Origin: Scleroderma bovista
Lineage: Eukaryota; Basidiomycota; Agaricomycetes; Boletales; Sclerodermataceae
NCBI GenBank assembly: GCA_037178675.1
Contig: JAYMGJ010000093.1
Coordinates: 1-64,000 of the forward strand
Direction: 5' to 3'
Length of the DNA stretch: 64,000 nucleotides
The position numbers and the translations under genes were made by a program. How positions within the stretch are numbered: the stretch's first letter is position 1; every line of letters starts with the position of its first letter. Of this stretch, positions 5,196 to 39,705 are shown piece after piece. Below the pieces are notes generated by a model. It ran no database searches, was not told the DNA's origin, and saw nothing but the letters and a program-made list of their open reading frames with translations.

Positions 5196-8100
5196 TAGGG
5201 TTCGTCACGGGTATACCCATGGGTGGGAATAGCTCAACCCGTACCCACACCCGCACTACATACCCACACCCGCCAAGCGGGTACGGGTATGGTCAACGGG
5301 TATCACGGGTACCATACCCGTTGGCATACCCACAATGGGTATGAACGAGTATACCCGCGGGTCTGAGTACAATGTAGGTACAGTCTGGGCAAAGCATAGA
5401 TACATGTGCAATGTAGATGTAGGTGTACTACTAACTAATCTAAGTTCGTGCCACCCTCAGTCTCATCTTCATCATCGACTTCTGGTAGCGCGCCAACCTT
5501 GAGGACGTCTTCATTCTTGACAAGCCCAAGGTGGCTCCATGCACCGAGGCATAGCAATGCCCTGGTTGAATCAACAGACAGACGAGAGCGAACATGTGAA
5601 AGAAGTAGCCGGCCACGGCTAAAGAGGCGCTCAACATTGATTGAAGTAGCTAGCGGAGATGTCAGTAAAAGAAATAATGCGAGGCCAACTGTGCAGTGCA
5701 CACCTGGGACAGAAAGGTAATTGAGTGCCATCCTCGAAAGGCAAGGATATGTGGCACGGTGCTCATGCCACCATGCAATGGCATCTGTGACGTGCTCAAC
5801 GTCAGTGGTAAGGTAGCGGTCGAGCTCCGTATGATGATCGGAGGATCGGGGAGGAGGTAAAGCATCAAGACGGTCGAACATGTTGGGCACAGCAGCACTC
5901 TGCATGGCATCTGTTGAAGTGCCAGCGTCCAGTATCTCGACATCAGAGTCTTCTTCGGGCACAGAATATGACTGCTCAAAGGTATCGCGTACGAGTTTTT
6001 CTGTATTCCTGATCCAGGTGGGCAATCGGTGAGTGTTCTTGAAGTATGTTAATTTGTAGCGTGGGTGAAGAACTAGTATAATGTATGAATGTCCGAGACC
6101 AGATTCAGAAAACAAAGGATAACTTACCCATCGCGATGCGGTAAAGCACTGACTTGTCTGTTGATGAGTAGTAACGACTTAATGTTTTCTGTGCAAGCTC
6201 CATGGAAGCACGGATTGGGGCAGAATAAGATTGACTGTGAGCATAGCCGGTAAATTCCCTGTCCATGAGATCCATGGCAGGGATGACGGATGCGAGATTG
6301 GGGATGCAAACTGGTTGTTCTTTCGTAGCTTTCGTTGGGATGTATGTACTGCCGCGCGAGAAGTAGAGCGTAGCGTCTTTGAGAATCTGCAAACGTGTCA
6401 TTTGTTTGTTTGTTTGACGGAACACATGACCAACATGCGGCCACTACTGACCTTCAAAACATCGCGCAGCTCCCCCAGCACTTCCCACTCATGGTCACTC
6501 AACTCAAACGCCCTCAACCCCAAGTCCCTACGCTGGGTAACTCCATCCACTGCATCCCGGTAGTCAACGCCAACATCAACCATATCGCAACACGAATTCC
6601 AGCGAGTGGAAACATCACGCGGTATCAGGCGGGGCTCCAGCTCAAGATCGCGGCAGATTTCTCTCCAAGCAGGGAGAACAATGGTCGTCGAATGAACAAC
6701 CTTGAAGGCCAGCTTGCGCAGCTGTTCCAGGCAATTAACAGCTTGTCTCAGGTAAGTGTTTTCGCTCACCTTGCCAACTGCTAATCTGATCGGACGAATC
6801 GATGCCTGTAGCTGACGCCGCTCAACATCACTCAATGCTTCAACTTCATCCACCCATCCTTCAGCATTGTCATTCTCGACTGCCTGTCCATCAACTTCAC
6901 CGCTTGTCTGAGCAATCATTGTCGCATCCTCTTCCTCCAACTCTGTCTCAAGCTCAGCCAGTTCAACGTCCCCCAAATCTTTTTTCTTTGGATCAAACAG
7001 CCGCATCAGCGACTTGGCCACAAGGTTCGTTATATGCAAGAAGCAGCGCAATCGTGCGGTTGCCCCATTAAAGCTGGGTACCTTTTCTTCCAGCTTGCGG
7101 ACCATCACATCGTTGTTTGATGCGTTATCGCATGTCACGGCGAGTATCTACTGTTGTTAGTCGAAGGTAAGTCATCAAGCTTATAATATGTACCTTATTT
7201 GATATGTTAAACTCATCCAGAACCTGAGCAAAGACGTTTGCAAGTTCGTCCCCTGTGTGGGACTGTAATCCAATTGTCATCAGTCTTATTACATGATAGG
7301 TAAGTTATTCTTACCCTAGCAACTTCGACAATATCTAACGGAATGCTCTGCAGTGAGCCATTATTTTCAAAGTGGACGCCAAATGCTATATATGCATGAT
7401 GGTTGGGTGATGTCCACCCATCTGTCGTGAAATTGAGTTTTCCTGGGTACTCCTAGTAAGTTTTTCAGTGTCATCACACTGTCAGTCCTCAAAGATACTG
7501 ACCATCATCATTGTAGCCATCCGCTTCCGTGTTTGAATGAAGACCGCATGAACGTCTCGAGCAATTGTGCTCACAGATGGTAAGTAGTATGCTGGTCTAC
7601 CTGTCTTCATCAAGCACTGAAAAGCACGGTCTTCGACAATATGAAATGGCCGCAGGCTTTTGGCCACCCAGCGTACAATTTCTGCCCTTCATAGGTGCTC
7701 CATGTCAGTCAATACACTTGTAGGTTGGCCGGCAATGTTACCTGGTTTCTGCGGGCGTGTGTGGTCGAGTGGAGTGAGTAGGCTTTCCCTTTCCCTTCCT
7801 TTCAAAAGCCTCCGTAATTGACCCGTTGTGCAGAATCCCGTTGACAATCTTTGTTTGGACATCATTAACATCCTTTGCATCGTCAGCGGTGTTCATCACG
7901 TCTTCACCCCAGCAGCTCTTGACATGCTTGCGCAGGTTACTTGTAGACTTGGAATCTTTGGTGTCGAGAAACCTCCGGATCTTGACACTGCAACGAAGCC
8001 CGCGGCAGCGGAATTGATGCGCATGGCGCCCATCACTATAAATCACTTCGGCCTTAAAAAATGTATAAACCGGTGAGGACCACTCCTTCAGCATACGCTC

Positions 8101-8776: not shown

Positions 8777-9360
8777 CATAGTGTATGGTCCGGCCAGGGT
8801 GTGTAGTTTAACCATAGTATACAGTCTGGCCTGGGTGTGGGTGTCACCATAGTTTATGGTCGGGCCAGGGTACCAGTGTCACCATCATATAGGGCCTGGC
8901 CTGGGTGCAGGTGTCACCATAGTTTACAGTCAGGCCAGGGTACTGGTGTCACCATAATATACAGTCCAGCCTCAGTGTAGGTGTCACCATAGTTTATGGT
9001 CGGGCCAGGGTACTGGTGTCACCATAGTGTATGGTCCAGCCAGGGTACCAGTGTCACCGTAATATACAGTCTGGCCTGGGTGTGGGTGTCACCATAATGT
9101 ATGGTCGGGCCAGGGTACCAGTGTCACCGTAATATATAATCCGGCCTGGGTGTGGGTGTCACCATAGTTTATGGTTGGGCCAGGGTACTGGTGTCACCAT
9201 AATATACAGTCCGGCCTCAGTGTAGGTGTCACCATAGTTTATGGTCGGGCCAGGGTACCAGTGTCACCATAGTGTACGGTCCGGCCAGGGTACCAGTGTC
9301 ACTGTAATATACACTCTGGCCTGGGTGTGGGTATCACCATAGTTTATGGTTGGGCCAGGG
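8777..9360. repeat. Satellite A array (35-bp units)
   Basis: About 16 units alternate between a gtttatggtcgggccagggtac type and a atatacagtccggcctgggtg type, so a 70-bp dimer structure is visible. Each unit contains an imperfect dyad accata..tatggt. The array continues from 4987-5195 across the hAT insertion and is cut at 9361 by the KDZ element. Confidence 0.85.
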
Positions 9361-15956: not shown

Positions 15957-18900
15957 CTACGTGTCAAGTGCTGGTATACTAAGTATAAGGGATTGCAGAT
16001 AACGACGAAATTCACACATGTCCATCTCACGCAGATTGGTAAAGTCGCAGCCACGAAGAACCGCTGCAACCTGAGCTAACACCCAAAGTCCACAGTCGTA
16101 ACCATTTGATTGCAGAGGTTTCAGCTAAAAGGAATTTTGAGCGACAACGTTTGCATAGATTCTGCAGTACTTACTACGACTGGGTGTGCAGACCAGCATC
16201 CCGGAGTATCACAAGAGATTCCAAGCCTCTTGGAGGCAACAAGAGAGAAGCGAGCAATTAGGTGGATAATGTCCTGTGAATAGTTAGCAACCACAACAAC
16301 AGAGAAACATCATGTTACCTTTATGTCATGCTTCCATGGCTTTTGCTCTGCGAGGCTGTCAAAGAGAAGAAGTTGCTTAGAAGTAAGCTTGACAACACAA
16401 ACGACCCAGTGGCCAGCCGGGGATGGCCGGTGAATAGGGAGTATCCATATCGACTTTTCCCAGTAACGAGTCCACGAGACATTGCGCCACAAGACATCGT
16501 CTTGAGCGTGATAACGGATGCGGGGGAGGTCGTGGGTTGACAGCACTGCACATTGCGCAGCGCTTGCAGCCAGAAATTTTGAATACAGAAGAGCAGAGCA
16601 ACCGTTGATGCAAGCGTCGTTCAGTCGACCAGTTGGGGATGCGAGGCGCTCGTAGTCGTCGGTCTCGAATGTCTGACGAGGGAATCCATCCTGCGATTGT
16701 CGGACGCGCCTTGCATAAACGCCACGGACAATGAGCGTCTCACTGTAGATGTTGATCGTGTCAACCGCAAGGGTCTGCAGGAACAATGTTTCTAAATAGA
16801 AAGGGATATACTTGAACGGAACTTACGGATGGGATGGTCCAAATAAGTTCGGCACTATGAATGTTCTTCTCAGCTTCGATATCACACGGGTCATCTCCGT
16901 CGGCATTGGAATGTTCTTCGAGAACGTCTTCCAAGGCAATTTGATCCGCATCCAAGATTGGTTCAACTGGATCAAAGTCCACAAGCGGTAATCCCGGATC
17001 TTCAGTGAAGGTGTCCACAGAGACGTCGCACAGAACTGGAGGTAGCCACTGCACCTCAAGCGGGGCCGCGGTACCTGCAAGGGATGAAGCAGTAATCAGG
17101 GCAGTGCGCGCATGACTGGCGTAATGAATGGTCGAAGCAAGCGGAGTAGGCCACCTTTCCTGCAGCTTGGCGAGGGATTCTCGATGTTGTTGAAGAAGCA
17201 GATAATACATAGAGTCTGGAGAGTATCAGTGCTTGAAGTCAATGAACTCTGAAGACTTACTTTCAGGCTGTCGTATTGCGAGTTCAAGAGCACATAATTC
17301 GTGGCCAAACCAGCGGCACATATTGTCAGCCTCCATTCCAAGCCGCCGTTGCTCTTCGAGACAGCAGTCAATTTTGAGGACCGCTCTAATGCCTTCCCTT
17401 ACATCAGCGTCTTCCAGCCACCGCGGGATTTCCCCAACAGAAGGAGTAACCCAAACATCTTCTAGAAGACTTTGGTCATTCCGTAAATCTGCCAGCTTCG
17501 TGGGGAGTGGTGAAGGAAGAGGGATACAGGATGATGCGTCGTATAACTCCGCAAGGCGTTCACAATACGTATTGAATTTACGAATGGCGGCCATAAGAGC
17601 TGGCTGTCGCTTGGCGATTGCTTTCCGGGTCTGTTGGTGGAGTTTTGTGCCTAGAAACCAATGGTCAACACTACCGCAAGGAATTCAAGGTTCAATGTCA
17701 CTTACCTAAGGTTTTCTGCTTACCGCCTACGGCACAATCAAGCTTATCCCATTCAAAAAAACTACCAATCGCTCGCTGTCGAATGTTCATCTTCAGATCG
17801 CGTGCCAATAACAGGATGCGGACAAACTCCAAATTGACGCCGTGGAGTTCTGGAAACCTATCATGGATGTTGAGGGAGGTATACAGGACATCAACCTTGT
17901 TCAGAAGGCGATCGTGGCCCCGTTCCAAGCTCTTGAGGGCTTGGAGGGTGTCCTGCGTCGCATCCTTCTCGATTATTGTGCGTGCAGTTTGTAGGGCTCT
18001 GTCAGAAGCCTCTAAGTCCGCCTGTAGCCCGAGAACCGTGTCTAATTCTTTCTTCAACCGAGCGGGCGCATCTAAATACTGATAAGCCGAGAACTTTAGT
18101 AACAACACACAAAGGCTTACGCGCCCGGAGAGAAAGTTGTGCACTGCATTGGTCAGACCATTGCTTCCGTAATTCCGGGATACCAACGCCACAAGCGCTG
18201 AGAATGCATTGTGCTTCATTACCTTGTTCAGTAACTCCCTTCTTCAGCTGCCGTCGAATCCAGTCTCCCAGGTCGGTTCGCATCTCCCATCCTATTGCCG
18301 TAGCATGACGATCAATGAGCCAGATGCGCCGCTGACGCTAAACAGGTATTTCAACTACTAAGTTAGTTGCTACAATGAAATAAACTTACTGATGAGGCTC
18401 GCTCAATGCCAATGAGCTTGATGAAGCATGACCAAAGTCGTTCCGTCCCTTCTCCATCTGAAAGACCTAGTCCCCTAATGATGCGCGGATTGTAAACGAG
18501 TTGGCACGACCACGCATGGCCGTAGGCATGCATCACGGTCATGGCAAAGCGGATGCGACGAACAATTTTATCATCAAGCATGTCAAACTTATCAAAATTA
18601 GTAGAAGTATATGAAAATACAAATGGCATACCTTTTCTAATGAACGAGCAAGAACACAACCAACGTCATACAACACAACAACAGTGGCCATAGATGGCAA
18701 ATAGGAAAAGAGGTGTTCAAGAAGTGCGACACTATACTTTTGTTGCTCACCAGGGCTGTCGATGTTGGCAAAGAAAAGGGGAATATCATGACGGCATATC
18801 AATGCCATGATGCCGGTGTCGTCGAAGCAGTCCATCGCTGCCTTCTGTTTGTTACCGTCAGCAGCTTCATACGAAGACTCACATTGATCAATTGCCTCAT

Positions 18901-20209
18901 CTGGAACTTCAGCATGGTGATGCCTCGGTGTCCGCTTACGTGCTCGTTGAATTCGCCGTCCGACCTCATCCACTTGAGCTTTTGGAATGAAGTACGCAGG
19001 ATCATAGAACGGGGGACAACTTCCCGCCGAACGTTGATGGCGATGGTGAAAGTTTCCGTCAGTGGCCACGTGAATATCACCACCATCGCTTAATGACCGC
19101 CCGAAGGTGTGACCTGCAAAGCAGGCAGGGCATCGTTGTATAAGAATGGATGCGCACGAGCCCGGGTGCCATTGTTCAGAGGACGTCGAGATGGGGGTCA
19201 GCAGGCGTTGCTCGGTAGACTGAGCGTGATTGAGATGGTTCAGCACAGATTGGCGACAACATTCTATGATACTTTCCACGCGGCGTTCGACCTGCACTTG
19301 CAAAACATCATACCATTGCACAGCATTGCCAATGCTACGACGAAACGGTTCTTGAATGACACCACCCTATGTGCCAAGCCTGTAAACGAGTGCAGAAGGT
19401 AATAGACATAGCACTTACCTCTTGTGTGGTCATCCGAAAGCCTCGGCGCTCATAGTGAGTAGTAAGCGCAGAGGCAAGAGCATTGATGGAGTCGCACGAT
19501 CGCTCAAATAATGAGCGGTAGAATCCGAGGAGGTCCACGGAAATGGCCAGGCGCGGTTGAGAGGGGGCAGTGGGGAAAAGGCCCGAACGCAGGAGCAATT
19601 GAGGAAGCGATGTGCAGGAGCAACTTTGAACTGTCACAGTGGCAAAACCTGAAATGAGATCAGTCTTCATGTAGGGGAAGGAAAATGTCACGCACGGTCG
19701 AAATATAAGCAGAGCAGGGAAGAGCGTTTGGGCTCACAAATTCCAGTCCCATGACAGCCGAAGAGCAGGTTGTCATGGTTTGTGAGTGGTTTTCTGATGG
19801 TTTCCGTTAGATACTGGAGAAACGGCTCGATGATGGTGGGGATAACTGCCATCCAGCTGTCATACAACCGGCCGACAGCCATACTTGGCGCAGAGTAGTT
19901 ACTGGCAACATCTTCAAGCGTGGGTTCATCAGCTGGGTGCTGGATCGTTTGAGTACCGTCTAATGCGTCTACAACATTTTCCTCCGGGGGAGGAGAGTTT
20001 GTACCAGATGGTGGAGGAGAGGATGAATTGTGATCGAAGAGATCGTTCAACTGTTGAAGGAGTCGTTGCCGTTTCGCACTTTGACCTGGAATGGTGACAT
20101 TAGTTTGATTTTTTCTCTTGTCATGCCGTTTTTTGGGACTGGAAAATTGCTGGCCCATGCCAAGCGTGGTGCTGGGCAATGCACGGCGGGTCCCAGGCCG
20201 GGGATGCAT
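15957..20209 (-). CDS. KDZ transposase fused to Ulp1/C48-type protease
   Basis: Many-exon minus-strand gene; stop at 15957-15959. N-terminal exon (20209-19688) begins MHPRPGTRRALPSTTLGMGQ. The next exon has a CSC cluster and LFPTAPSQPRLAISVDLLGFY. The catalytic region carries CPACFAGHTFG (about 19132), ATDGNFHHRH (Asp near 19060), ANIDSPGEQQKYS, VVLYDVGC (Asp near 18667) and YGHAWSCQ..LGLSDGEGTERLWS (Glu near 18452/18443), which fits a complete D-D-E set. Downstream is a helical region (18219-16761). The C-terminus is a C48 cysteine protease: LNDACINGCSALLY, GHWVVCVV (His 16411-16409), LFDSLAEQ (Asp 16360-16358) and QSNGYDCGLWV (Cys 16094-16092). KDZ transposases with C-terminal Ulp1 domains are known in Agaricomycetes. 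All catalytic landmarks are present, so the copy may be active. Exon boundaries and start codon are approximate. Confidence 0.85.
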
Positions 20210-20588: not shown

Positions 20589-20714
20589 CCAACCTATTCT
20601 TAGCACTGGTCGGGAGATGCCGATGCGGATGGTTGATCTATTAGATAAATTGTTTTGGTCACAAAATATATATCTAACAGACCGCTATTGCTTCCGAAAA
20701 GTGGTGCCTAAGGT

Positions 20715-21415
20715 GGCCAGGGTACCGGTGTCACCGTAATATATAATCTGGCCTGGGTGTGGGTGTCACCATAGTTTATGGTTGGGCCAGGGTACCGGTG
20801 TCACCATAGTTTACAGTCAGGCCAGAGTACTGGTGTCACCATAATATACAGTCCGGCCTCGGTGTAGGTGTCACCATAGTTTATGGTCGGGCCAGGGTAC
20901 CGGTGTCACTGTAATATACACTCTGGCCTGGGTGTGGGTATCACCATAGTTTATGGTTGGGCCAGGGTACTGGTGTCACCATAATATATAATCCGGCCTG
21001 GGTGTGGGTGTCACCATAGTGTACAGTCCAGCCAGGGGACCAGTGTCACCATATTGTATGGTCCGGCCAGGGTACCAGTGTCACCATAATGTACAATCCG
21101 GCCTGGGTGTGGGTGTCACCATAATGTATGGTCGGGCCAGGGTACCGGTGTCACCGTAATATATAATCCAGCCTTGGTGTGGGTGTCACCATAGTTTATG
21201 GTTGGGCCAGGGTACTGGTGTCACCATAGTTTACAGTCAGGCCAGGGTACCGGTGTCACCATAGTATACAGTCCAGCCAGGGTACCGGTGTCACCATAAT
21301 ATACAATCCGGCCTGGGTGTGGGTGTCACCATATTTTATGGTCGGGCCAGGGTACCAGTGTCACCATAATATATAATCTGGCCTTGGTGTGGGTGTCACC
21401 ATAGTGTATGGTCAG
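20715..21415. repeat. Satellite A array (35-bp units)
   Basis: This continues the array at 8777-9360 across the KDZ insertion, same orientation, about 20 units. It ends at the solo LTR. Confidence 0.85.
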
Positions 21416-21808
21416 TGTAACGGACTAACTTTTTATCTTATCTAATCTGCGATTAGATGACATCTTATCTTATCGTACCGTAGTATCTTATCTAGTGCAT
21501 CTTATCTGTAGGTCTGTCTAGACTACAGCCTCGTGCTGTACATGCTGTATCCCTTGATGTCATTAGCATAGCCTTACCACAGGACGGCAGCTGTGCTCAC
21601 TGCCTCGTACAGCATACAGCCTCATGGGTAGCCTCGCACAGGACACGTGTAGTGTAGTATATATACTGCTGCAATCCAGCACCCAGAGGCTCTCCATTCG
21701 AGCTCTCTTTGGGTTTTCGCTCTAAGACGCTTGATTCCTATTTCCTCCTCAGAGTCTCAACGTGTGGTAGTTCTTTGGGTTGTTTGCCCTTAGGGTTGTC
21801 TCAGTCAG
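21411..21808 (+). mobile_element. Solo LTR of the chromodomain gypsy family
   Basis: The LTR spans 21416-21803 (388 bp), begins TGTAACGG, ends TTGTCTCA and is flanked by gtcag at 21411-21415 and 21804-21808. It matches the two LTRs of the full element at 32981-39328, in the same orientation. Internal recombination between two LTRs is the usual origin. Its putative transcript start region attcgagctct (21696-21706) matches the self-priming site of the full element exactly. Confidence 0.9.
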
Positions 21809-22793
21809 GCCAGGGTGCTAGTCTCATAGGCACTGGAATACATATCTGATTCCATTAAGTGATTGTTTTGAGTTATGGTGCATATCTGTGAGTTTGGGAT
21901 CATTCCTCCGGCCTATGGGACATGAAACTGGTCCCTGGCATATGCAACTGGCCCCTGGAACATTACACCAGCCTCTGGAATGTTACACTGGCCACAGGAA
22001 CATCACATCGGGCTCTGTAACACACACTGGAAGCCATTGAATGATGTTATTAAATTATGGTGCATGTCTGTGAGTTTAGGATCATTCCTCCGGCCTATGG
22101 CACATGAAACCAGTCCCTAAGACATGCAACCAGTCCCTGGCACATTACACCGGTCACAGGAACATCACATCGGGCTCTGTAACACACACCTGTAGCTATT
22201 GAGTGATGTTATTAAATTATGGTGCATGTCTGTGCATTTAGGATCATTCCTCCGGCCTATGGCACATGTAACCGGTCACTAGTACATGCAACCAGTCCCT
22301 AGTACATGCAACCAGTCCCTGGCACATTACACCGGTCACAGGAACATCACATCGGGCTCTGTAACACACTGGTAGCTATTGAGTGATGTTATTAAATTAT
22401 AGTGCATGTCTGTGAGTGTAGGATCATTCCTCCGGCCTATGGCACATGTAACTGGTTGCTAGTACATGCAACTGGTCCCTGGCAGATTACACCGGTCACA
22501 GGAACATCACATTGGGCTGTGTAACATACACCGGTAGCTATTGAGTGATATTATTGAATTATGGTGCATGTCTGTGAGTTTAGGATCATTCCTCCGGCCT
22601 ATGGCACATGTAACCGGTCCCTAGTAGATTCAACCGGTCCCTGGCACATTACACCGGTCACAGGAACATCACATTGGGCTCTGTAACACACACCTGTAGC
22701 TATTGAGTGATGTTATTAAATTATGGTGCATGTCTGTGCATTTAGGATCATTCCTCTGGCCTATGGCACATGTAACCGGTCACTAGTACATGC
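21809..22793. repeat. Satellite B array (~162-bp units), left part
   Basis: After a short remainder of satellite A (to about 21830), units containing taaattatggtgcatgtctgtgag and aggatcattcctccggcctatggcacatg recur with spacings of 162, 180, 162 and 162 bp (near 22051, 22213, 22393, 22555, 22717). The 180-bp unit has one extra copy of a ctagtacatgcaaccagtcc subrepeat. The array is cut by the palindromic element at 22794 and resumes at 30291 in the same orientation. Confidence 0.85.
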
Positions 22794-22895
22794 CAGGTAG
22801 TTCAGTCACAAACCCTCGCAAAAGTGGGTCATCGGACATGTACATTTGCCTGTAAAGGTGGGACTAGCTGACGCCGGCCGATGCTCGCAGAACCG

Positions 22896-23450
22896 GGCCA
22901 GGCCGATGTTTTCTATTATTGCAAATCTAGTACAGGCCTGAGGGACATTAATCACTGCAAAACTGGGATGGGCTGATGTTTGATAAAAATTGCAGAACTG
23001 GGACTGGTGGGAGCATTGTAAAACTAGGTCAGGCCTGTTGAACAAAAAAATTGACAAGTGTTGCAAAGCTGGGACTGGCCGATGTTGTAGATACATTGCA
23101 AAACTGGGTCAGGCCTGTTGAGAAAAAAGTTGTCAATTACTGCAAAACTGGGTCAGGCTGACATGGCAGAATGGGGTCAGGCCTTTTGAGGAAAAAATTG
23201 TCAAGCATTGCAAAACTGGGTCAGGCTGACATTGTATATACATTGCAGAACTGGATCAGGCCTGTTGAGAAAAAAAGTTGTCAAGCATTGCAAAACTGGG
23301 TCAGGCTGACATTGCAGAACTGGGTCAGGCCTGTTGAGAAACAAAGTTGTCAAGTACTGCAAAACTGGGTCAGGCCTGTTGAGCAAAAAAGTTGTCAACC
23401 ATTGCAAAACTGGGTCAGACCCAAAATTGATACACATTGCAGAATTAAAT
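22896..23450. repeat. Palindrome arm: actgggtcaggcctgttgag repeats
   Basis: Variable-length direct repeats containing attgcaaaactgggtcaggcc and tgttgagaaaaaagttgtcaa occur about ten times. The mirror copy is at 29627-30181. Open frames across them only reflect the repeat period. Confidence 0.75.
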
Positions 23451-23460
23451 TACTGTGCTG

Positions 23461-25650
23461 ACTACCAAAAATGTGGACCATTGATTAGGCAATATTGTGT
23501 ACTGTTGGTGTGATAGTGTTGACTACCAAAGATGTGCAGCTTGGATTATCTAATGTTGTGTTCTATTGGTGTGGTAGTGCTGATTACCAAAAATGCGGAC
23601 TATTGATTAGCCAATGTTGTGTAGTGTTGTTGTTGTAGTGTACTACCAAAAATGTGTAGTATTGATTACCTAATGTTGGGTACTCTTGGTGTGGTAGTGC
23701 TGATTACCAAAAATGCGGACTATTGATTGGCCAATGTTGTGTAGTGTTGTTGTTGTAGTGTACTACCAAAAATGTGTAGTATTGATTACCTAATGTTGGG
23801 TACTCTTGGTGTGGTAGTGCTGATTACCAAAAATGCGGACTATTGATTGGCCAATGTTGTGTAGTGTTGTTGTTGTAGTGTACTACCAAAAATGTGTAGT
23901 ATTGATTACCTAATGTTGGGTACTCTTGGTGTGGTAGTGCTGATTACCAAAAATGCGGACTATTGATCAACCAATATTGTGTGGTGTTGTTGTAGTGTAC
24001 TACCAAAAAAAGTGTAGTACTGATTACCTAATGTTGTGTAGTATTGATGTGATAGTGTTCATTACCAAAAATGCGGACTGTTGATTAGCCAATATTGTGT
24101 AGTGTTGTTGTTGTAGTGTACTACCAAAGATGTGTAGTATTGATTATCTAATGTTTTGTACTGTTGGTGTGGTAGTGTTGATTACCAAAAATGTGTAGCT
24201 TGGATTACCTAATGTTGTGTACTGTTGGTGTGGTAGTGCTGATTACCAAAAATGCGAACCATTAGCCAATGTTGTGCAGTGTTGTTGTTGTGCAGTGTTG
24301 TTGTTTAGTGTTGATTACCAAAAATGTGTAGCTTGGATTACCTAATGTTGTGTACTGTTGGTGTGGTAGTGCTGATTACCAAAAATGCGAACCATTAGCC
24401 AATGTTGTGCAGTGTTGTTGTTGTAGTGTTGATTACCAAAAATGTGTAGCTTGGATTACCTAATGTTGTGTACTGTTGGTGTGGTAGTGCTGATTACCAA
24501 AAATGCGAACCATTAGCCAATATTGTGTAGTGTTGTTGTTGTAGTGTACTACCAGAAATGTGTAGTATTAATTACCTAATGTTGTGTACTATTGATGTGG
24601 TAGTGTTGATTACCAAAAATGCGAACTATTGATCAACCAATGTTGTGTAGTGTCATTGTTGTAGTGTTGATTACCAAAAATGTGTAGCTTGGATTACCTA
24701 ATGTTGTGTACTGTTGGTGTGGTAGTGTTGATTACCAAAAATGCGGACTATTGATTAGTCAATATTGTGTAGTGTTGATTACCAAAAATGTGTAGTTTGG
24801 ATTACCTAATGTTGTGTACTGTTGGTGTGGTAGTACTGATTATCAAAAATGCGGACTATTGATTAGTTGTTGTAGTGTACTAACAAAAATGTGTAGTATT
24901 GATTATCTAATGTTGTGTACTGTTGGTGTAGTAGTACTGATCATCAAAAATGCGGACTATTGATTAGTTGTTGTAGTGTACTACCAAAAATGTGTAGTTT
25001 GGATGACCTAATGTTGTGTACTGTTGGTGTGGTAGTGTTGATTATCAAAAGTGCGGACTATTGGTTAGTCAATATTGTGTAGTGTTAATTACCAAAAATG
25101 TGTAGTTTGGATTACCTAATGTTGTGTATTGTTGGTGTGGTAGTGTTGATTATCAAAAATGCGGACTATTGATTAGCCAATATTGTGTAGTTTGGATTAC
25201 CTAATGTTGTGTACTGTTGGTGTAGTAGTGCTGATTATCAAAAATGCGGACTATTGATTAGCCAATATTGTGTAGTGTTGTTGTTGTAGTGTACTACCAA
25301 AAATGTGTAGTATTGATTACCTAATGTTGGGTACTCTTGGTGTGGTAGTGCTGATTACCAAAAATGCGGACTATTGATCAACCAATATTGTGTGGTGTTG
25401 TTGTAGTGTACTACCAAAAATGTGTAGTACTGATTACCTAATGTTGTGTAGTGTTGATGTGATAGTGTTCATTACCAAAAATGCGGACTGTTGATTAGCC
25501 ATTATTGTGTAGTATTGTATTGTTTAGTGTTGATTACCAAAAATGCGGACTATTGATTAGGAAATGTAGTGTAGTGTTTGTGTATTGGAGTTGATTACCA
25601 ACATTGTGTAGTTTTCATTAACTAAATTCAGTAGTGTCAACACTTGATTA
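23461..25650. repeat. Palindrome arm: 60/120-bp taccaaaaatg minisatellite
   Basis: Units alternate between a accaaaaatgcggactattgatta type and a accaaaaatgtgtagtattgatta type, giving a ~120-bp dimer. Three successive dimers at 23581-23940 are almost exact copies. The reverse complement fills 27427-29616 in the other arm. Confidence 0.8.
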
Positions 25651-26490
25651 CATAAGCTCTCCAAGCGCCACTACTCCCAAAACATTACCATATTTGGTCA
25701 ATAGTTGACTTCAAATATTCCCACCTTTGTTCTGGTACTTTTCTTCCCCTTCTGTGCTTCATCCCTGGTCCAAATGTACTGTAAAAATGATTCTGTATCC
25801 CATATTACCCTATAGGATCACCATTGGACCCTCATCTAAATGTGCAAGGGGCTCTGTATCCCCAGAGAGTAGTGCAGGCTTAAAAACACCAAAAATGTTC
25901 GCATTTTTGATACATTCAACATATCAACTTAAAGAATGCATCCCCATACAGGGGATATATGTACCTACAACATATTTACAGTCCACAGCATGGGATCCAT
26001 GTCCTGGTGCGATGTTTTATGTTTTTCCTTTGCAAACATATCACCATGGCAGGCAATTACTAGGAGGTATGGTGGCTACTGGATGGTCTCCAATGGTATT
26101 ACTATGCTATACCAAAGTCCCAATACAATCTAGTGAGCAGCTGACCACTCCAAGAGGAGCAGCATAGAAAACAGCACTTTCATAACAATAGGTGCTGTAT
26201 GATCCTCCAGATCAGGTATGCACAATATGACTATCTCAAAAGCTGGGGGATACCATACAGTAGTGGATACAATTTACTCAAGTCAATACCGCTTGATGTG
26301 GGGGAGGGAAGGGCACAATAACATACAGAAGGCGTGGGAAAATACCCCACAAAATGCGGAGATATGCAAAAACATTACATATCACACAACACATAACATC
26401 TACTGACCTAGAAATGCTACCAACAGCCTACTAATATCACATAATGCTTATACTCAGCTGTTCCTGACATGCTTAGAGGCACAAATCATT
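25651..26490. other. Palindrome arm: inner single-copy segment with mirrored ORF
   Basis: This is the only non-repetitive part of the arm, present once in each arm (mirror 26587-27426). It contains a 146-codon open frame at 25727-26167 (mirror 27350-26910), beginning MFWYFSSPSVLHPW, and a 62-codon frame at 26218-26406. Neither resembles a protein family I know, and there is no zinc finger, DDE or helicase motif. The frame could be fortuitous. Confidence 0.4.
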
Positions 26491-26586
26491 CAAGGTTTGA
26501 AAAATGCGGAAATGTGCTACATCATATCAGTACTGCAGGTGCAAAGCTGCAGTGTATATGGACAGTAACAACATGTTCTTGGTTCA
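26491..26586. other. Spacer at palindrome centre
   Basis: About 96 bp that do not pair with each other separate the two arms. This would be the loop of a hairpin or cruciform. Confidence 0.7.
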
Positions 26587-29500
26587 AATGATTTGTGCCT
26601 CTAAGCATGTCAGGAACAGCTGAGTATAAGCATTATGTGATATTAGTAGGCTGTTGGTAGCATTTCTAGGTCAGTAGATGTTATGTGTTGTGTGATATGT
26701 AATGTTTTTGCATATCTCCGCATTTTGTGGGGTATTTTCCCACGCCTTCTGTATGTTATTGTGCCCTTCCCTCCCCCACATCAAGCGGTATTGACTTGAG
26801 TAAATTGTATCCACTACTGTATGGTATCCCCCAGCTTTTGAGATAGTCATATTGTGCATACCTGATCTGGAGGATCATACAGCACCTATTGTTATGAAAG
26901 TGCTGTTTTCTATGCTGCTCCTCTTGGAGTGGTCAGCTGCTCACTAGATTGTATTGGGACTTTGGTATAGCATAGTAATACCATTGGAGACCATCCAGTA
27001 GCCACCATACCTCCTAGTAATTGCCTGCCATGGTGATATGTTTGCAAAGGAAAAACATAAAACATCGCACCAGGACATGGATCCCATGCTGTGGACTGTA
27101 AATATGTTGTAGGTACATATATCCCCTGTATGGGGATGCATTCTTTAAGTTGATATGTTGAATGTATCAAAAATGCGAACATTTTTGGTGTTTTTAAGCC
27201 TGCACTACTCTCTGGGGATACAGAGCCCCTTGCACATTTAGATGAGGGTCCAATGGTGATCCTATAGGGTAATATGGGATACAGAATCATTTTTACAGTA
27301 CATTTGGACCAGGGATGAAGCACAGAAGGGGAAGAAAAGTACCAGAACAAAGGTGGGAATATTTGAAGTCAACTATTGACCAAATATGGTAATGTTTTGG
27401 GAGTAGTGGCGCTTGGAGAGCTTATGTAATCAAGTGTTGACACTACTGAATTTAGTTAATGAAAACTACACAATGTTGGTAATCAACTCCAATACACAAA
27501 CACTACACTACATTTCCTAATCAATAGTCCGCATTTTTGGTAATCAACACTAAACAATACAATACTACACAATAATGGCTAATCAACAGTCCGCATTTTT
27601 GGTAATGAACACTATCACATCAACACTACACAACATTAGGTAATCAGTACTACACATTTTTGGTAGTACACTACAACAACACCACACAATATTGGTTGAT
27701 CAATAGTCCGCATTTTTGGTAATCAGCACTACCACACCAAGAGTACCCAACATTAGGTAATCAATACTACACATTTTTGGTAGTACACTACAACAACAAC
27801 ACTACACAATATTGGCTAATCAATAGTCCGCATTTTTGATAATCAGCACTACTACACCAACAGTACACAACATTAGGTAATCCAAACTACACAATATTGG
27901 CTAATCAATAGTCCGCATTTTTGATAATCAACACTACCACACCAACAATACACAACATTAGGTAATCCAAACTACACATTTTTGGTAATTAACACTACAC
28001 AATATTGACTAACCAATAGTCCGCACTTTTGATAATCAACACTACCACACCAACAGTACACAACATTAGGTCATCCAAACTACACATTTTTGGTAGTACA
28101 CTACAACAACTAATCAATAGTCCGCATTTTTGATGATCAGTACTACTACACCAACAGTACACAACATTAGATAATCAATACTACACATTTTTGTTAGTAC
28201 ACTACAACAACTAATCAATAGTCCGCATTTTTGATAATCAGTACTACCACACCAACAGTACACAACATTAGGTAATCCAAACTACACATTTTTGGTAATC
28301 AACACTACACAATATTGACTAATCAATAGTCCGCATTTTTGGTAATCAACACTACCACACCAACAGTACACAACATTAGGTAATCCAAGCTACACATTTT
28401 TGGTAATCAACACTACAACAATGACACTACACAACATTGGTTGATCAATAGTTCGCATTTTTGGTAATCAACACTACCACATCAATAGTACACAACATTA
28501 GGTAATTAATACTACACATTTCTGGTAGTACACTACAACAACAACACTACACAATATTGGCTAATGGTTCGCATTTTTGGTAATCAGCACTACCACACCA
28601 ACAGTACACAACATTAGGTAATCCAAGCTACACATTTTTGGTAATCAACACTACAACAACAACACTGCACAACATTGGCTAATGGTTCGCATTTTTGGTA
28701 ATCAGCACTACCACACCAACAGTACACAACATTAGGTAATCCAAGCTACACATTTTTGGTAATCAACACTAAACAACAACACTGCACAACAACAACACTG
28801 CACAACATTGGCTAATGGTTCGCATTTTTGGTAATCAGCACTACCACACCAACAGTACACAACATTAGGTAATCCAAGCTACACATTTTTGGTAATCAAC
28901 ACTACCACACCAACAGTACAAAACATTAGATAATCAATACTACACATCTTTGGTAGTACACTACAACAACAACACTACACAATATTGGCTAATCAACAGT
29001 CCGCATTTTTGGTAATGAACACTATCACATCAATACTACACAACATTAGGTAATCAGTACTACACTTTTTTTGGTAGTACACTACAACAACACCACACAA
29101 TATTGGTTGATCAATAGTCCGCATTTTTGGTAATCAGCACTACCACACCAAGAGTACCCAACATTAGGTAATCAATACTACACATTTTTGGTAGTACACT
29201 ACAACAACAACACTACACAACATTGGCCAATCAATAGTCCGCATTTTTGGTAATCAGCACTACCACACCAAGAGTACCCAACATTAGGTAATCAATACTA
29301 CACATTTTTGGTAGTACACTACAACAACAACACTACACAACATTGGCCAATCAATAGTCCGCATTTTTGGTAATCAGCACTACCACACCAAGAGTACCCA
29401 ACATTAGGTAATCAATACTACACATTTTTGGTAGTACACTACAACAACAACACTACACAACATTGGCTAATCAATAGTCCGCATTTTTGGTAATCAGCAC

Positions 29501-30290
29501 TACCACACCAATAGAACACAACATTAGATAATCCAAGCTGCACATCTTTGGTAGTCAACACTATCACACCAACAGTACACAATATTGCCTAATCAATGGT
29601 CCACATTTTTGGTAGTCAGCACAGTAATTTAATTCTGCAATGTGTATCAATTTTGGGTCTGACCCAGTTTTGCAATGGTTGACAACTTTTTTGCTCAACA
29701 GGCCTGACCCAGTTTTGCAGTACTTGACAACTTTGTTTCTCAACAGGCCTGACCCAGTTCTGCAATGTCAGCCTGACCCAGTTTTGCAATGCTTGACAAC
29801 TTTTTTTCTCAACAGGCCTGATCCAGTTCTGCAATGTATATACAATGTCAGCCTGACCCAGTTTTGCAATGCTTGACAATTTTTTCCTCAAAAGGCCTGA
29901 CCCCATTCTGCCATGTCAGCCTGACCCAGTTTTGCAGTAATTGACAACTTTTTTCTCAACAGGCCTGACCCAGTTTTGCAATGTATCTACAACATCGGCC
30001 AGTCCCAGCTTTGCAACACTTGTCAATTTTTTTGTTCAACAGGCCTGACCTAGTTTTACAATGCTCCCACCAGTCCCAGTTCTGCAATTTTTATCAAACA
30101 TCAGCCCATCCCAGTTTTGCAGTGATTAATGTCCCTCAGGCCTGTACTAGATTTGCAATAATAGAAAACATCGGCCTGGCCTGGTTCTGCGAGCATCGGC
30201 CGGCGTCGGCTAGTCCCACCTTTACAGGCAAATGTACATGTCCGATGACCCACTTTTGCGAGGGCTTTTGACTGAACTATGTGTACATGC

Positions 30291-30770
30291 AACTGGTCCC
30301 TAGTACATTACACCGGTCACAGAAACATCACATCGGGCTCTGTAACACACACTGGTAGCTATTGAGTGATGTTATTAAATCATGGTGCATGTCTGTGAGT
30401 GTAGGATCATTCCTCCGGCCTATGGGACATGTAACCAGTCCCTAGTCCATGCAACCGGTCCCTGGCAGATTACACCGGTCACAGGAACATCACATCGGGC
30501 CGTGTAACACACACCGGTAGCTATTGAGTGATATTATTGAATTATGGTGCATGTCTGTGAGTTTAGGATCATTCCTCCGGCCTATGGCACATGTAATCGG
30601 TCCCTAGTACATGCAACCGGTCCCTGGCACATTACACCAGTCACAGGAACATCACATCGGGCCGTGTAACACACACCGGTAGCTATTGAGTGATGTTATT
30701 AAATTATGGTGCATGTCTGTGAGTTTAGGATCATTCATCTGGCCTATGGCACATGCAACCAGTCCAGGCA
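30291..30770. repeat. Satellite B array, continuation after the palindrome
   Basis: About three units in the same orientation as 21809-22793, ending in caaccagtccaggc, after which the repeat stops. Confidence 0.8.
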
Positions 30771-31399: not shown

Positions 31400-32160
31400 A
31401 TGCCATACTAGGCTGGAGGAATAATCCTGAAGGCATAGACATGCACCATAACTCACAACCATCATTGAATTGCTTTGGATGTTTGTTCCAGAGCCTGATC
31501 CAATGTTCCAGTGGCTGGTGTAATGTTCCAGAGGCCAGTGGACTGTTCCAGGGACCGGGTTGCATGTTCCAGGGACCGGTTACATGTGCCATAGGCCGGA
31601 GGGTTGATTGTAAACTCACAGACATGCACCATAATGTAATAACATTACTCAATAGCTTCTGGTGTGTGTTGCAGAACCCGATGTGATGTTCCTGTGACTG
31701 GTGTAATGTGCCAGGGACCAGTTGCATGTGCCAGGGACCGGTTACATGTGCCATAGGCTGGAGGAATGATCCTAAACTCACAGACATGCACCATGATTTA
31801 ATAACATCACTCAATAGCTACCGGTGTGTGTTACACGGCCTGATGTGATGTTCCTGTGACCGGTGTAATGTGCCAGGGACCAGTTGCATGTACAAGGGAC
31901 TGGTTACATGTCCCATAGTCCGGAGGAATGATCCTACACTCACACAGACATGCACCATAATTTAATAACATCACTCAATAGCTACCGGTGTGTGTTACAG
32001 AGCCTGATGTGATGTTCCTGTGACCGGTGTAATGTGCCAGGGACCGGTTGCATGTACTAGGGACCGGTTACATGTGCCATAGGCCGGAGGAATGATCCTA
32101 AACTCACAGACATGCACCATAACTCAAAACAATCACTTAATGGCATCAGATATGTGTTCC
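31400..32160. repeat. Satellite B array, inverted right arm
   Basis: About four to five units are the reverse complement of the left array (ggccggaggaatgatcctaa, cagacatgcaccataa). At 32113-32200 the transition into satellite A matches the reverse complement of the left-arm transition at 21804-21890. Confidence 0.85.
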
Positions 32161-32980
32161 AGTGCCCATGATGCCAGCACCCCGGCCTGACCATACACTA
32201 TGATGACACCAGTACCCTGGCTGGGCCATATATGATGGTGATGCCAGTACCCTGGCCAGACTGCACACTATGGTGACACCAGCATCCTGGCCAGATTGTA
32301 TATTATTGTGACACTGGTAACCTGGTCAAACTGTAAACTATGACATGGGTACCCTGGCCCGACTGTAAACTATGGTGACACCTGCACCCAGGCCAGGTCC
32401 TATATGATGATGACACTGGTACCCTTGCCGGACCATACACTATGGTGACACCCACACCCAGGCCGGATTGTATATTATGGTGACCGGTACCCTGGCCGGA
32501 CCGTACACTATGGTGACACTGGTACCCTGGCCTGACCATAAATTATGGTGACACCCACACCCAGGCTGGATTGTATATTATGGTTACACCAGTATCCTGG
32601 CCTGACCATAAACTATGGTGACACCCACACCCAGGCCGGACTGTATATTATTATCACACCGGTACCCTGGCCGGACCATACACTATGGTGACACTGGTAC
32701 CCTGGCCCGACCATAAATTATGGTGACACCCACACCCAGGCTGGATTGTATATTATGGTGACACCAGTATCCTGGCCCGACCATACACTATGGTGACACT
32801 GGTACCCTGGCCCAACCATAAATTATGGTGACACCCACACCCAGGCTGGATTGTATATTACAGTGACACCGGTACCCTGGCCTGACCATAAATTATGGTG
32901 ACACCCACACCCAGGCCAGATTGTATATTACGGTGACACCAGTACCCTGGCCAGACCGTACACTATGGTGACACCGGTAC
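32161..32980. repeat. Satellite A array, inverted right arm
   Basis: About 23 units of 35 bp (accctggcc..gaccatacactatggtgacac) run opposite to the left-arm arrays. The array is cut at 32981 by the gypsy element and resumes at 39329. Confidence 0.85.
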
Positions 32981-33362
32981 TGTAACGGTCTAACTTTTTA
33001 TCTTATCTAATCTGTGATTAGATGACATCTTATCTTATCATAGCATAGTATCTTATCTAGTGCATCTTATCTATAGGTCTGTCTAGACTACAGCCTTGTG
33101 CTGTACATGCTGTATCCCTTGATGTCATTAGCATAGCCTTACCACAGGATGGCAGCTGTGCTCACTGCCTCATACAGCATACAGCCTCATGGATAGCCTC
33201 GCACAGGACACGTGTAGTGTAGTATATATACTGCTGCAATCCAGCACCCAGAGGCTCTCCATTTGAGCTCTCTTTGGGTCTTTGCTCTAAGATGCTTGCA
33301 TCCTTTCCTCTCAGAGTTTGTTGTGTGGTAGTTCTTTGGGTTTTGCCCTTAGGGTTGTCTCA
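32981..33362 (+). repeat. Gypsy 5' LTR
   Basis: 382 bp, TGTAACGG..TTGTCTCA. A TATA box (tatatata, 33223-33230) lies 38 bp upstream of atttgagctct (33261-33271), the likely transcript start. Confidence 0.9.
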
Positions 33363-38938: not shown

Positions 38939-38949
38939 GGGGGGAGTAG
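38937..38949 (+). promoter_or_regulatory. Polypurine tract
   Basis: aaggggggagtag lies immediately before the 3' LTR, the expected primer for second-strand synthesis. Confidence 0.8.
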
Positions 38950-39328
38950 TGTAACGGTCTAACTTTTTATCTTATCTAATCTGCGATTAGATGACGTCTT
39001 ATCTTATCATACCATAGTGTCTTATCTAGTGCATCTTATCTGTAGGTCTGTCTAGACTACAGCCTTGTGCTGTATCCCTTGATGTCATTAGCATAGCCTT
39101 ACCACAGGATGGCAGCTGTGTTCACTGCCTCGTACGGCATACAGCCTCATGGATAGCCTCGCACAGGACATGTGTAGTATAGTATATATACCGTTGCAAT
39201 CCAGCACCCAGAGGCTCTCCATTCGAGCTCTCTTTGGGTTTTTGCTCTAAGACGCTTGGTTCCTACTTCCTCCTCAGAGTCTCAACGTGTGGTAGTTCTT
39301 TGGGTTGTTTGCCCTTAGGGTTGTCTCA
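38950..39328 (+). repeat. Gypsy 3' LTR
   Basis: 379 bp, TGTAACGG..TTGTCTCA. It lacks a 9-bp acatgctgt segment present in the 5' LTR and keeps the exact self-priming complement at 39221-39231. Confidence 0.9.
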
Positions 39329-39705
39329 GGTACCCTGGCCCGACCATAAATTATGGTGACACCCCCACCCAGGCCGGATTGTATATTACGGTGACACTGG
39401 TACCCTGGCCCAACCGTACACTATGCCGGTACCCTGGCCCGACCATAAATTATGGTGACACCCACACCCAGGCCAGATTGTATATTACGGTGACGCTGGT
39501 ACCCTGGCCAGACCATACACTATGGTAACACCCACACCCAGGCCGGATTGTATATTATGGTGACACCAGTACCCTGGCCTGACCGTACACTATGGTGACA
39601 CTGGTACCCTGGCCCGACCATAAATTATGGTGACACCCACACCCAGGCCGGATTGTATATTACGGTGACACTGGTACCCTGGCCGGACCATACACTATGG
39701 TGACA
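39329..39705. repeat. Satellite A array, right arm continuation
   Basis: About ten 35-bp units in the same orientation as 32161-32980. It is cut at 39706 by a second LTR. Confidence 0.85.

What the first reader, a model, noticed from the sequence alone, without database searches (positions are those of the whole stretch)
22786..30290. 7.5-kb near-perfect palindrome inserted in a satellite, with arm divergence only at the tips
Arms of about 3.7 kb mirror each other about 26538.5 in perfect register. The six differences I found by eye all fall in the outer ~100 bp (22796, 22797, 22809, 22812, 22869, 22895 against their partners), while the other stretches compared were identical. The flanking satellite keeps one orientation and gtacatgc repeats on both sides. 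The arms are themselves built of two minisatellites and a single-copy core. Ordinary fold-back elements drift evenly; a gradient that spares the inside suggests the inner arms were copied from each other, for instance by hairpin fill-in or gene conversion, or that the element moves as a hairpin. I know of no described fungal element of this form.
Basis: partly seen in the sequence, partly recalled or inferred. Interest (0 to 1): 0.9.

Follow-up and report, generated by a model that had tools for sequence, protein, structure and literature searches.

The report
Palindromic fold-back transposon family in fungus
This is one of roughly fifty copies of a mirror-image jumping element, here 7.5 kb long, in a fungal genome; its two halves are kept nearly identical while its two extreme tips stay different in a fixed way, and it probably borrows its moving enzyme from other elements.

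Summary
The palindrome is real: 22794-30283, 3697-bp arms around a 96-bp asymmetric spacer, all six arm mismatches within 102 bp of the tips. Its direct repeat is 7 bp (TACATGC), not 8. It belongs to a fold-back transposon family; the 51.8-Mb assembly holds 48 left-type and 53 right-type tips. Four of the six mismatches are not decay but a fixed left/right signature. Exact 7-bp duplications join left to right ends in 17 of 1020 pairs, and left-left or right-right in 0 of 996. Arms are homogenised within elements: the window copy has eight private changes in both arms and two in one arm. The spacer occurs in both orientations relative to the tips. Best reading: a non-autonomous fold-back element moved in trans through two unlike ends, its arms re-equalised by inter-arm recombination. 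Its tip is 87-88% identical over 103-107 bp to one terminus found 2.9-9.4 kb from CxC2+KDZ genes in 4 of 4 cases, so a KDZ driver is plausible, though 7 bp is unusual for KDZ. Some full-length copies are chimeric (duplication mates on different contigs), so arm identity and loop orientation need long-read confirmation. New variant of a known kind.

The parts
22787..22793 (+). left target-site duplication TACATGC
22794..26490 (+). left arm (3697 bp), tip type L (CAGGTAGTTCAGTCACAAACCC)
22794..22812 (+). L-end signature: bases 3=G, 4=G, 16=C, 19=A from the tip
23014..23418 (+). minisatellite 1 of the left arm (rows of 45, 68, 69, 79 and 148-bp period)
23455..25625 (+). minisatellite 2 of the left arm (about 61/120-bp units); most A/B subfamily differences lie here
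25640..26490 (+). inner core of the left arm, outside the tandem arrays; the 146-aa ORF 25727-26167 has a single near-identical database hit and no Pfam match
26491..26586 (.). 96-bp asymmetric spacer (loop), found in both orientations relative to the tips in other copies
26587..30283 (-). right arm (3697 bp), reverse complement of the left arm
30265..30283 (-). R-end signature: bases 3=C, 4=A, 16=A, 19=G from the tip (CACATAGTTCAGTCAAAAGCCC)
30284..30290 (+). right target-site duplication TACATGC
21854..22793 (+). host satellite (about 162-bp unit) left of the insertion
30284..30765 (+). the same satellite, same orientation, right of the insertion

Best explanation
A non-autonomous fold-back DNA transposon. 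A transposase supplied in trans (most likely of a KDZ element with a related tip) cuts at two unlike ends, L (CAGG...) and R (CACA...), and inserts with a 7-bp staggered cut. The element shows no known gene; it is two long arms of minisatellites plus a core around a 96-bp loop. The arms are inverted homologues, so homologous recombination inside one element (gene conversion, with crossovers that flip the loop) keeps re-equalising them. The last ~20 bp are not equalised, because exchange cannot run into the unlike flanks and because an element with two equal ends would probably not be propagated. Shown: family, boundaries, 7-bp duplication, L/R pairing of ends, arm-shared private changes (as assembled), both loop orientations (as assembled), tip homology to a terminus near KDZ genes. 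Inferred: trans-mobilisation by KDZ, recombination as the copying process, and the need for unlike ends.
For: Family: 48 L and 53 R tips at up to 2 mismatches, reversed-pattern control 0 (C826 is in both lists). Target duplication: 34 L x 30 R end flanks give 17 exact 7-bp matches in 1020 pairs (0.06 expected), 13 of them at one copy, none at 6, 8 or 9 bp or shifted by 1-3. Control for end type: 0 of 561 L-L and 0 of 435 R-R pairs match. Signature: four bases the same in 7 of 7 aligned elements with both tips intact (four of the seven lack a duplication). Homogenisation: among three duplication-bearing elements, 79 of 93 variable columns agree between both arms of each element, and 4 of the 14 exceptions are the signature. 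Window element: 3 substitutions, 3 deletions and 2 insertions (as aligned) private and in both arms, against 2 substitutions in one arm. Loop orientation relative to the L tip: 10 as in the window, 16 reversed of 26; among the 12 of these with a duplication (C717 with 6 of 7 included) 3 and 9. KDZ link: 4 of 4 tips of one related type (C127, C252, C324, C491; four different flanks) lie 2.9-9.4 kb from a CxC2+KDZ gene that points towards the tip, at 6415 and 6413 bp in two copies. No known coding.
Against: The 7-bp duplication is not the 8 bp reported for Zisupton (PMC12730594) or KDZ1 (PMC12810828). No copy with both family ends was seen to encode KDZ: the far end of the KDZ-linked copies was not found (listings capped), and C472 (12.5 kb, both ends, exact duplication) has no listed KDZ or CxC2 hit (both scored only the best 150 candidates). 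A hAT domain lies inside two tips (C466 at 3.2 kb, C1 at 8.2 kb). C21 has 11 substitutions and 3-5 indels between its arms, so homogenisation is incomplete. Eight L-R and three R-R same-contig copies lack a duplication, and four duplications pair ends on different contigs, so the assembly or the genome has exchanged palindrome halves. At 5 bp, four cross-contig pairs match where one is expected.
Confidence: 0.7

Rival explanations
1. The perfect inner identity of this copy and the mixed loop orientation are assembly products: both arms were built from pooled reads, and only reads anchored in the unique flanks kept the arm differences, hence differences only within ~100 bp of the flanks.
For: The extent of the differences (102 bp) is about a short read length. 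Palindrome halves are scrambled elsewhere: 4 duplications pair ends on different contigs, and the three R-R copies have no duplication of their own. Four fetched contigs (C541, C800, C278, C848) end within 0.8-3.4 kb of a tip, inside the arm.
Against: Arms are not collapsed in other copies: C21 and C483 keep arm-specific changes deep inside. The window copy has its own duplication, and the satellite continues on both sides. Its private changes are in none of the 14 other aligned arms. Short copies (C712 2.95 kb, C211 2.8 kb, C438 4.7 kb), each with its duplication, still show both loop orientations.
Confidence: 0.2
2. The second arm is regenerated by a hairpin intermediate: a single strand folds back, or a broken end primes on itself, and one whole arm is copied into the other during transposition.
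For: Would explain arms sharing dozens of changes and private indels, and the short, internally rearranged copies.
Against: Whole-arm copying should give elements with two equal tips. All 17 exact duplications join an L to an R end, and none joins equal ends (0 of 996 pairs). The three R-R copies have no duplication of their own; four of their six ends, on all three contigs, have duplication mates at L ends elsewhere.
Confidence: 0.1
3. The driving transposase is not KDZ but a hAT of the 7-bp type (hAT7) or a P/Galileo-like enzyme, and the KDZ genes only carry a related end by chance or nesting.
For: hAT7 in rust fungi makes 7-bp duplications (PMC12730594). Galileo, itself fold-back-like, makes 7-bp duplications (PMC4168063). 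The genome has many hAT domains (81 matches), and two lie within 10 kb inside a tip (C466 3.2 kb, C1 8.2 kb).
Against: The two hAT cases differ in distance, and a hAT match of the same frame length as that of C466 occurs at C265 and C607 where no tip was listed. CxC2+KDZ genes accompany 4 of 4 tips of the KDZ-linked type, two at almost the same distance.
Confidence: 0.25
4. The two arm types (A, B) each arose by an independent inverted duplication of a one-armed ancestor, so no continuing arm-to-arm exchange is needed.
For: A and B elements differ by about 80 substitutions and 10 indels shared by both arms.
Against: The spacer is 100% identical in complete copies of both types (C393 has a rearranged and C717 a cut spacer), so the palindrome was probably formed once. 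Private double-arm changes also exist inside type A (window) and type B (C483, 3350).
Confidence: 0.05

Closest known systems
Foldback (FB) and Tetris-type elements of Drosophila (PMC4079207, PMC4022104, passages read)
   Same: Long inverted arms containing tandem repeats around a middle loop, no conserved ORF in Tetris, target duplication, Tetris shares its outermost ends with another family
   Different: Arms here are 3.7 kb and near-perfect with a 96-bp loop; 7-bp instead of the 8-10-bp duplication of Tetris; fungal host; fixed unlike ends
Galileo, P superfamily, Drosophila (PMC4168063, passages read)
   Same: Fold-back-like long terminal repeats with tandem repeats, 7-bp duplication, ectopic exchange between copies
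   Different: Galileo relatives encode a P-type transposase; none was sought here and no sequence comparison was made
KDZ elements (Kyakuja-Dileera-Zisupton) of fungi (PMC12730594, PMC12810828, passages read)
   Same: Outer 103-107 bp is 87-88% identical to a terminus accompanying CxC2+KDZ genes in this genome; TIRs of Cryptococcus KDZ1-3 are of that order (139-241 bp)
   Different: 7-bp duplication (8 bp for Zisupton and KDZ1, 4-8 bp for KDZ2/3); no transposase found inside; multi-kilobase arms
Sea urchin TU elements (recalled; the sea urchin element is named as a foldback in PMC4079207)
   Same: Long inverted repeats with an outer tandem-repeat domain and an inner unique domain (recalled)
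   Different: Not compared here; metazoan; 8-bp duplication as recalled

Membership tests
Fold-back transposon | long inverted arms with tandem repeats flanking a loop | tested here: met
Fold-back transposon | dispersed copies with precise ends and target-site duplication | tested here: met
Fold-back transposon | shares its outermost sequence with a possible autonomous element | tested here: inconclusive
   one end shared with KDZ-gene-accompanied copies, 87-88% over 103-107 bp; their other end not found
KDZ superfamily | encodes a KDZ-domain transposase | tested here: not met
   no Pfam match in the 146-aa arm ORF; none of the KDZ matches listed lies in the window element (capped list). It could only be a non-autonomous derivative
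KDZ superfamily | 8-bp target duplication (4-8 bp reported for some fungal members) | tested here: inconclusive
   7 bp exactly in 13 copies
hAT7 | 7-bp target duplication | tested here: met
hAT7 | tips shared with an element encoding a hAT transposase | tested here: inconclusive
   two tips (C466, C1) with a hAT domain within 10 kb inside, sequences not read
P superfamily / Galileo | 7-bp target duplication | tested here: met
P superfamily / Galileo | related P/THAP-type transposase and matching tip sequence | not tested
   no search was made

The most novel reading that the evidence does not exclude
A transposon that lives as a self-healing palindrome: the host's recombination keeps re-symmetrising 3.7-kb arms and flipping the loop, the transposase requires two unlike ends and so purges fully symmetrised copies, and the family is a fold-back radiation tied to KDZ transposases, possibly with a hairpin stage in its cycle.
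Probability: 0.25. Interest if true: 0.75.

Novelty: new variant of a known kind. Interest (0 to 1): 0.55.

Why it matters
Long near-perfect palindromes are usually unstable (recalled), yet this fungus carries dozens of copies of one as a mobile element. The family gives natural replicates in which arm-to-arm copying, loop inversion and the limit of copying near the ends can be measured, and it can show whether a transposase needs unlike ends. It would also tie fold-back elements to the KDZ group. In the open library, 'Zisupton' plus 'foldback' gave one paper, in whose main text Zisupton is not named, and 'foldback', 'fungi', 'transposable element' and 'palindrom' together gave eight, none describing such an element by title and start of abstract; subscription papers are not covered. 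Practically, palindrome halves with swapped duplications are a warning for assemblies of such genomes.

Tried and rejected
hAT as driver: 81 domain matches, two within 10 kb inside a tip (C466, C1), not followed up for want of letters, so not excluded. Treating the three R-R copies (C137, C92, C364) as products of conversion that ran to the tip: dropped after target duplications showed that four of their six ends match L ends on other contigs. Treating C459's A/B arm difference as natural: dropped for the same reason. Coding potential of the arm ORF: one 99% hit on a 922-bp contig, no Pfam match. C472 and C199 as two-ended autonomous copies (12.5 and 11.5 kb): no KDZ or CxC2 hit listed there; interiors not read. 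Rfam and tRNA scans of the window were empty. Papers: passages read of PMC12730594, PMC12810828, PMC4079207, PMC4168063, PMC4022104, PMC9674265; all others only as search listings. Statements on TU elements and on palindrome instability are recalled. Loop-orientation counts leave out C393 (both orientations), C624 (centre 12 kb from its tip), the three R-R copies and five R-only copies (by eye 2 as in the window, 3 reversed); strands were copied by hand into. The nearest-domain table was likewise typed from contigs that I picked by eye from capped lists.
Full report
Observation. A position-by-position comparison confirms the palindrome: arms 22794-26490 and 26587-30283 pair about 26538.5, with six mismatches, all within 102 bp of the outer ends, and a 96-bp spacer in the centre that is not palindromic. 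Both arms contain minisatellites and an 851-bp core next to the spacer, outside the arrays. The flanking 162-bp satellite runs on in one orientation on both sides.

Host. Ten window ORFs scanned against Pfam gave HET, KDZ, copia-type and RT/RNase H domains. The own assembly has 51.8 Mb in 850 contigs with 166 KDZ and 143 CxC2 matches. From recalled knowledge this points to a basidiomycete; the species is unknown.

Family. The outer 707 bp match 136 places in the assembly, 40 of 137 candidates being scored. The L tip pattern occurs 48 times and the R tip pattern 53 times at up to two mismatches, with none for the reversed pattern. The 220-bp centre is present at 100% identity in 20 places (40 of 43 candidates scored). 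Comparing copies places the ends at CAGGTAGTTCAG... and, on the other strand, CACATAGTTCAG....

Target duplication. I compared 34 L-end flanks with 30 R-end flanks, not all tips of the family. Seventeen of 1020 pairs agree exactly over 7 bp against 0.06 expected. Thirteen are the two ends of one copy: C93 (the window), C21, C211, C233, C271, C375, C384, C438, C449, C472, C483, C712 and C837. No pair fits at 6, 8 or 9 bp or in frames shifted by 1-3; at 5 bp four cross-contig pairs match, one being expected. As a control, no L-L pair (of 561) and no R-R pair (of 435) matches over 7 bp. C717 agrees at 6 of 7. Eight L-R copies (C459, C254, C68, C50, C504, C327, C31 at 52.6-60.0 kb, C361) and three R-R copies (C137, C92, C364) have no duplication between their own ends; C244, whose right end is interrupted, has none either. 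The C199 pair (11.5 kb apart) was not examined.

Chimeric copies. The other four exact matches pair an L end on one contig with an R end on another: C350 with C364 right, C393 with C92 right, C459 with C137 left, C651 with C137 right. So C459 and the R-R copies are made of halves of different insertions, by misjoining in the assembly or by ectopic exchange in the fungus; I cannot tell which. I therefore rest the arm argument on duplication-bearing copies.

End signature. Sixteen arms of eight elements were aligned. At bases 3, 4, 16 and 19 from the tip, every element with both tips intact (7 of 7: C93, C21, C483, C459, C254, C68, C50; the last four lack a duplication) has G, G, C, A on the L arm and C, A, A, G on the R arm. 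Thus four of the window's six differences are inherited end identity. The remaining two (76 and 102 from the tip) are private to this copy, one in each arm. All 13 copies with their own exact duplication have one CAGG end and one CACA end; were end types drawn at random, the chance would be about 1e-4. A few tips vary at base 16 or 19 (C504, C472, C826).

Arm homogenisation. C93, C21 and C483 are full-length and carry their duplication. Of 93 variable columns, 79 have both arms of each element in agreement; 14 differ within an element, four being the signature. Across all eight elements, the window copy has three substitutions (101, 936, 3300), three deletions and two insertions (as aligned) that occur in both its arms and in none of the 14 other arms, against one substitution private to each arm. 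A change arises in one arm; its presence in both needs copying. The copying reached within about 100 bp of the tip. C21 is less equal: 11 substitutions and 3-5 indels, by way of counting, between its arms.

Loop orientation. Relative to the L tip the spacer has the window's orientation in 10 of 26 copies and the reverse in 16; in those with a duplication (C717 included) 3 and 9. Short copies, where misjoining is less likely, show both states: C438 as in the window, C712 and C211 reversed. This is what crossovers between the arms would give, but full-length copies could be mis-oriented by assembly.

Driver. No protein of known kind was found in the palindrome: the 146-aa arm ORF has no Pfam match and one database hit on a 922-bp contig. 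Four tips of a related type (C127, C252, C324, C491), with four different flanks but one 121-bp tip at 96-100%, are 87-88% identical to the palindrome's outer 103-107 bp. Each lies 2.9-9.4 kb from a CxC2+KDZ gene pointing towards the tip, at 6415 and 6413 bp in two copies. Five places carry this pair of domains over the same profile ranges: these four and C74, where a palindrome R tip lies 7.8 kb away; C292 shows only the KDZ and C672 only the CxC2 match. The far ends of these copies were not found with CANNTAGTTCAGTCA. I give KDZ mobilisation about 60%. Against it stand the 7-bp duplication, since Zisupton and KDZ1 make 8 bp, KDZ2 and KDZ3 4-8 bp and hAT7 7 bp (passages of PMC12730594 and PMC12810828), and hAT domains inside two tips (C466, C1).

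Conclusion. The finding is a real, high-copy fold-back transposon. The 'tip divergence' is mostly a fixed polarity of the ends, while the inner arms evolve in concert. It works like Foldback, Tetris or Galileo elements (passages) and differs by near-perfect multi-kilobase arms, a tiny invertible loop, fixed unlike ends and a probable KDZ tie. Open: long-read proof of arm identity and loop state, and the autonomous partner.

Noticed in passing
window 20714-22793 and 31519-32980: The palindrome sits inside a larger inverted arrangement: a 35-bp-unit array plus the 162-bp satellite on the left recur inverted on the right (best matches about 79-87% identity), as if a second fold-back-like element had been the target.
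   Followed up: partly
window 21414-21804, 32977-33362, 38946-39329: Three direct copies of a ~390-bp sequence (91-94% identity) next to the 35-bp arrays.
   Followed up: no
G000 C472:224686-237230 and C199:18337-29797: Two inward-facing tip pairs 12.5 and 11.5 kb apart; C472 has an exact 7-bp duplication AAGACTT. Possible larger or autonomous relatives, interiors unread.
   Followed up: partly
L036 (C244) 9050-9159: The right end of this copy is interrupted close to its tip by roughly 90 bp of other sequence; the outermost bases mix R (3, 4) and L (16) states.
   Followed up: no
G000 C137, C92, C364: R-R palindromes; four of their six ends have target-duplication mates at L ends on other contigs: likely misjoins or ectopic exchange.
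   Followed up: partly
window 18539-19321 (-): A KDZ transposase fragment lies 3.5 kb outside the element; with a CxC2 match below cut-off at 19497-19655 it may be a decayed KDZ gene.
   Followed up: no
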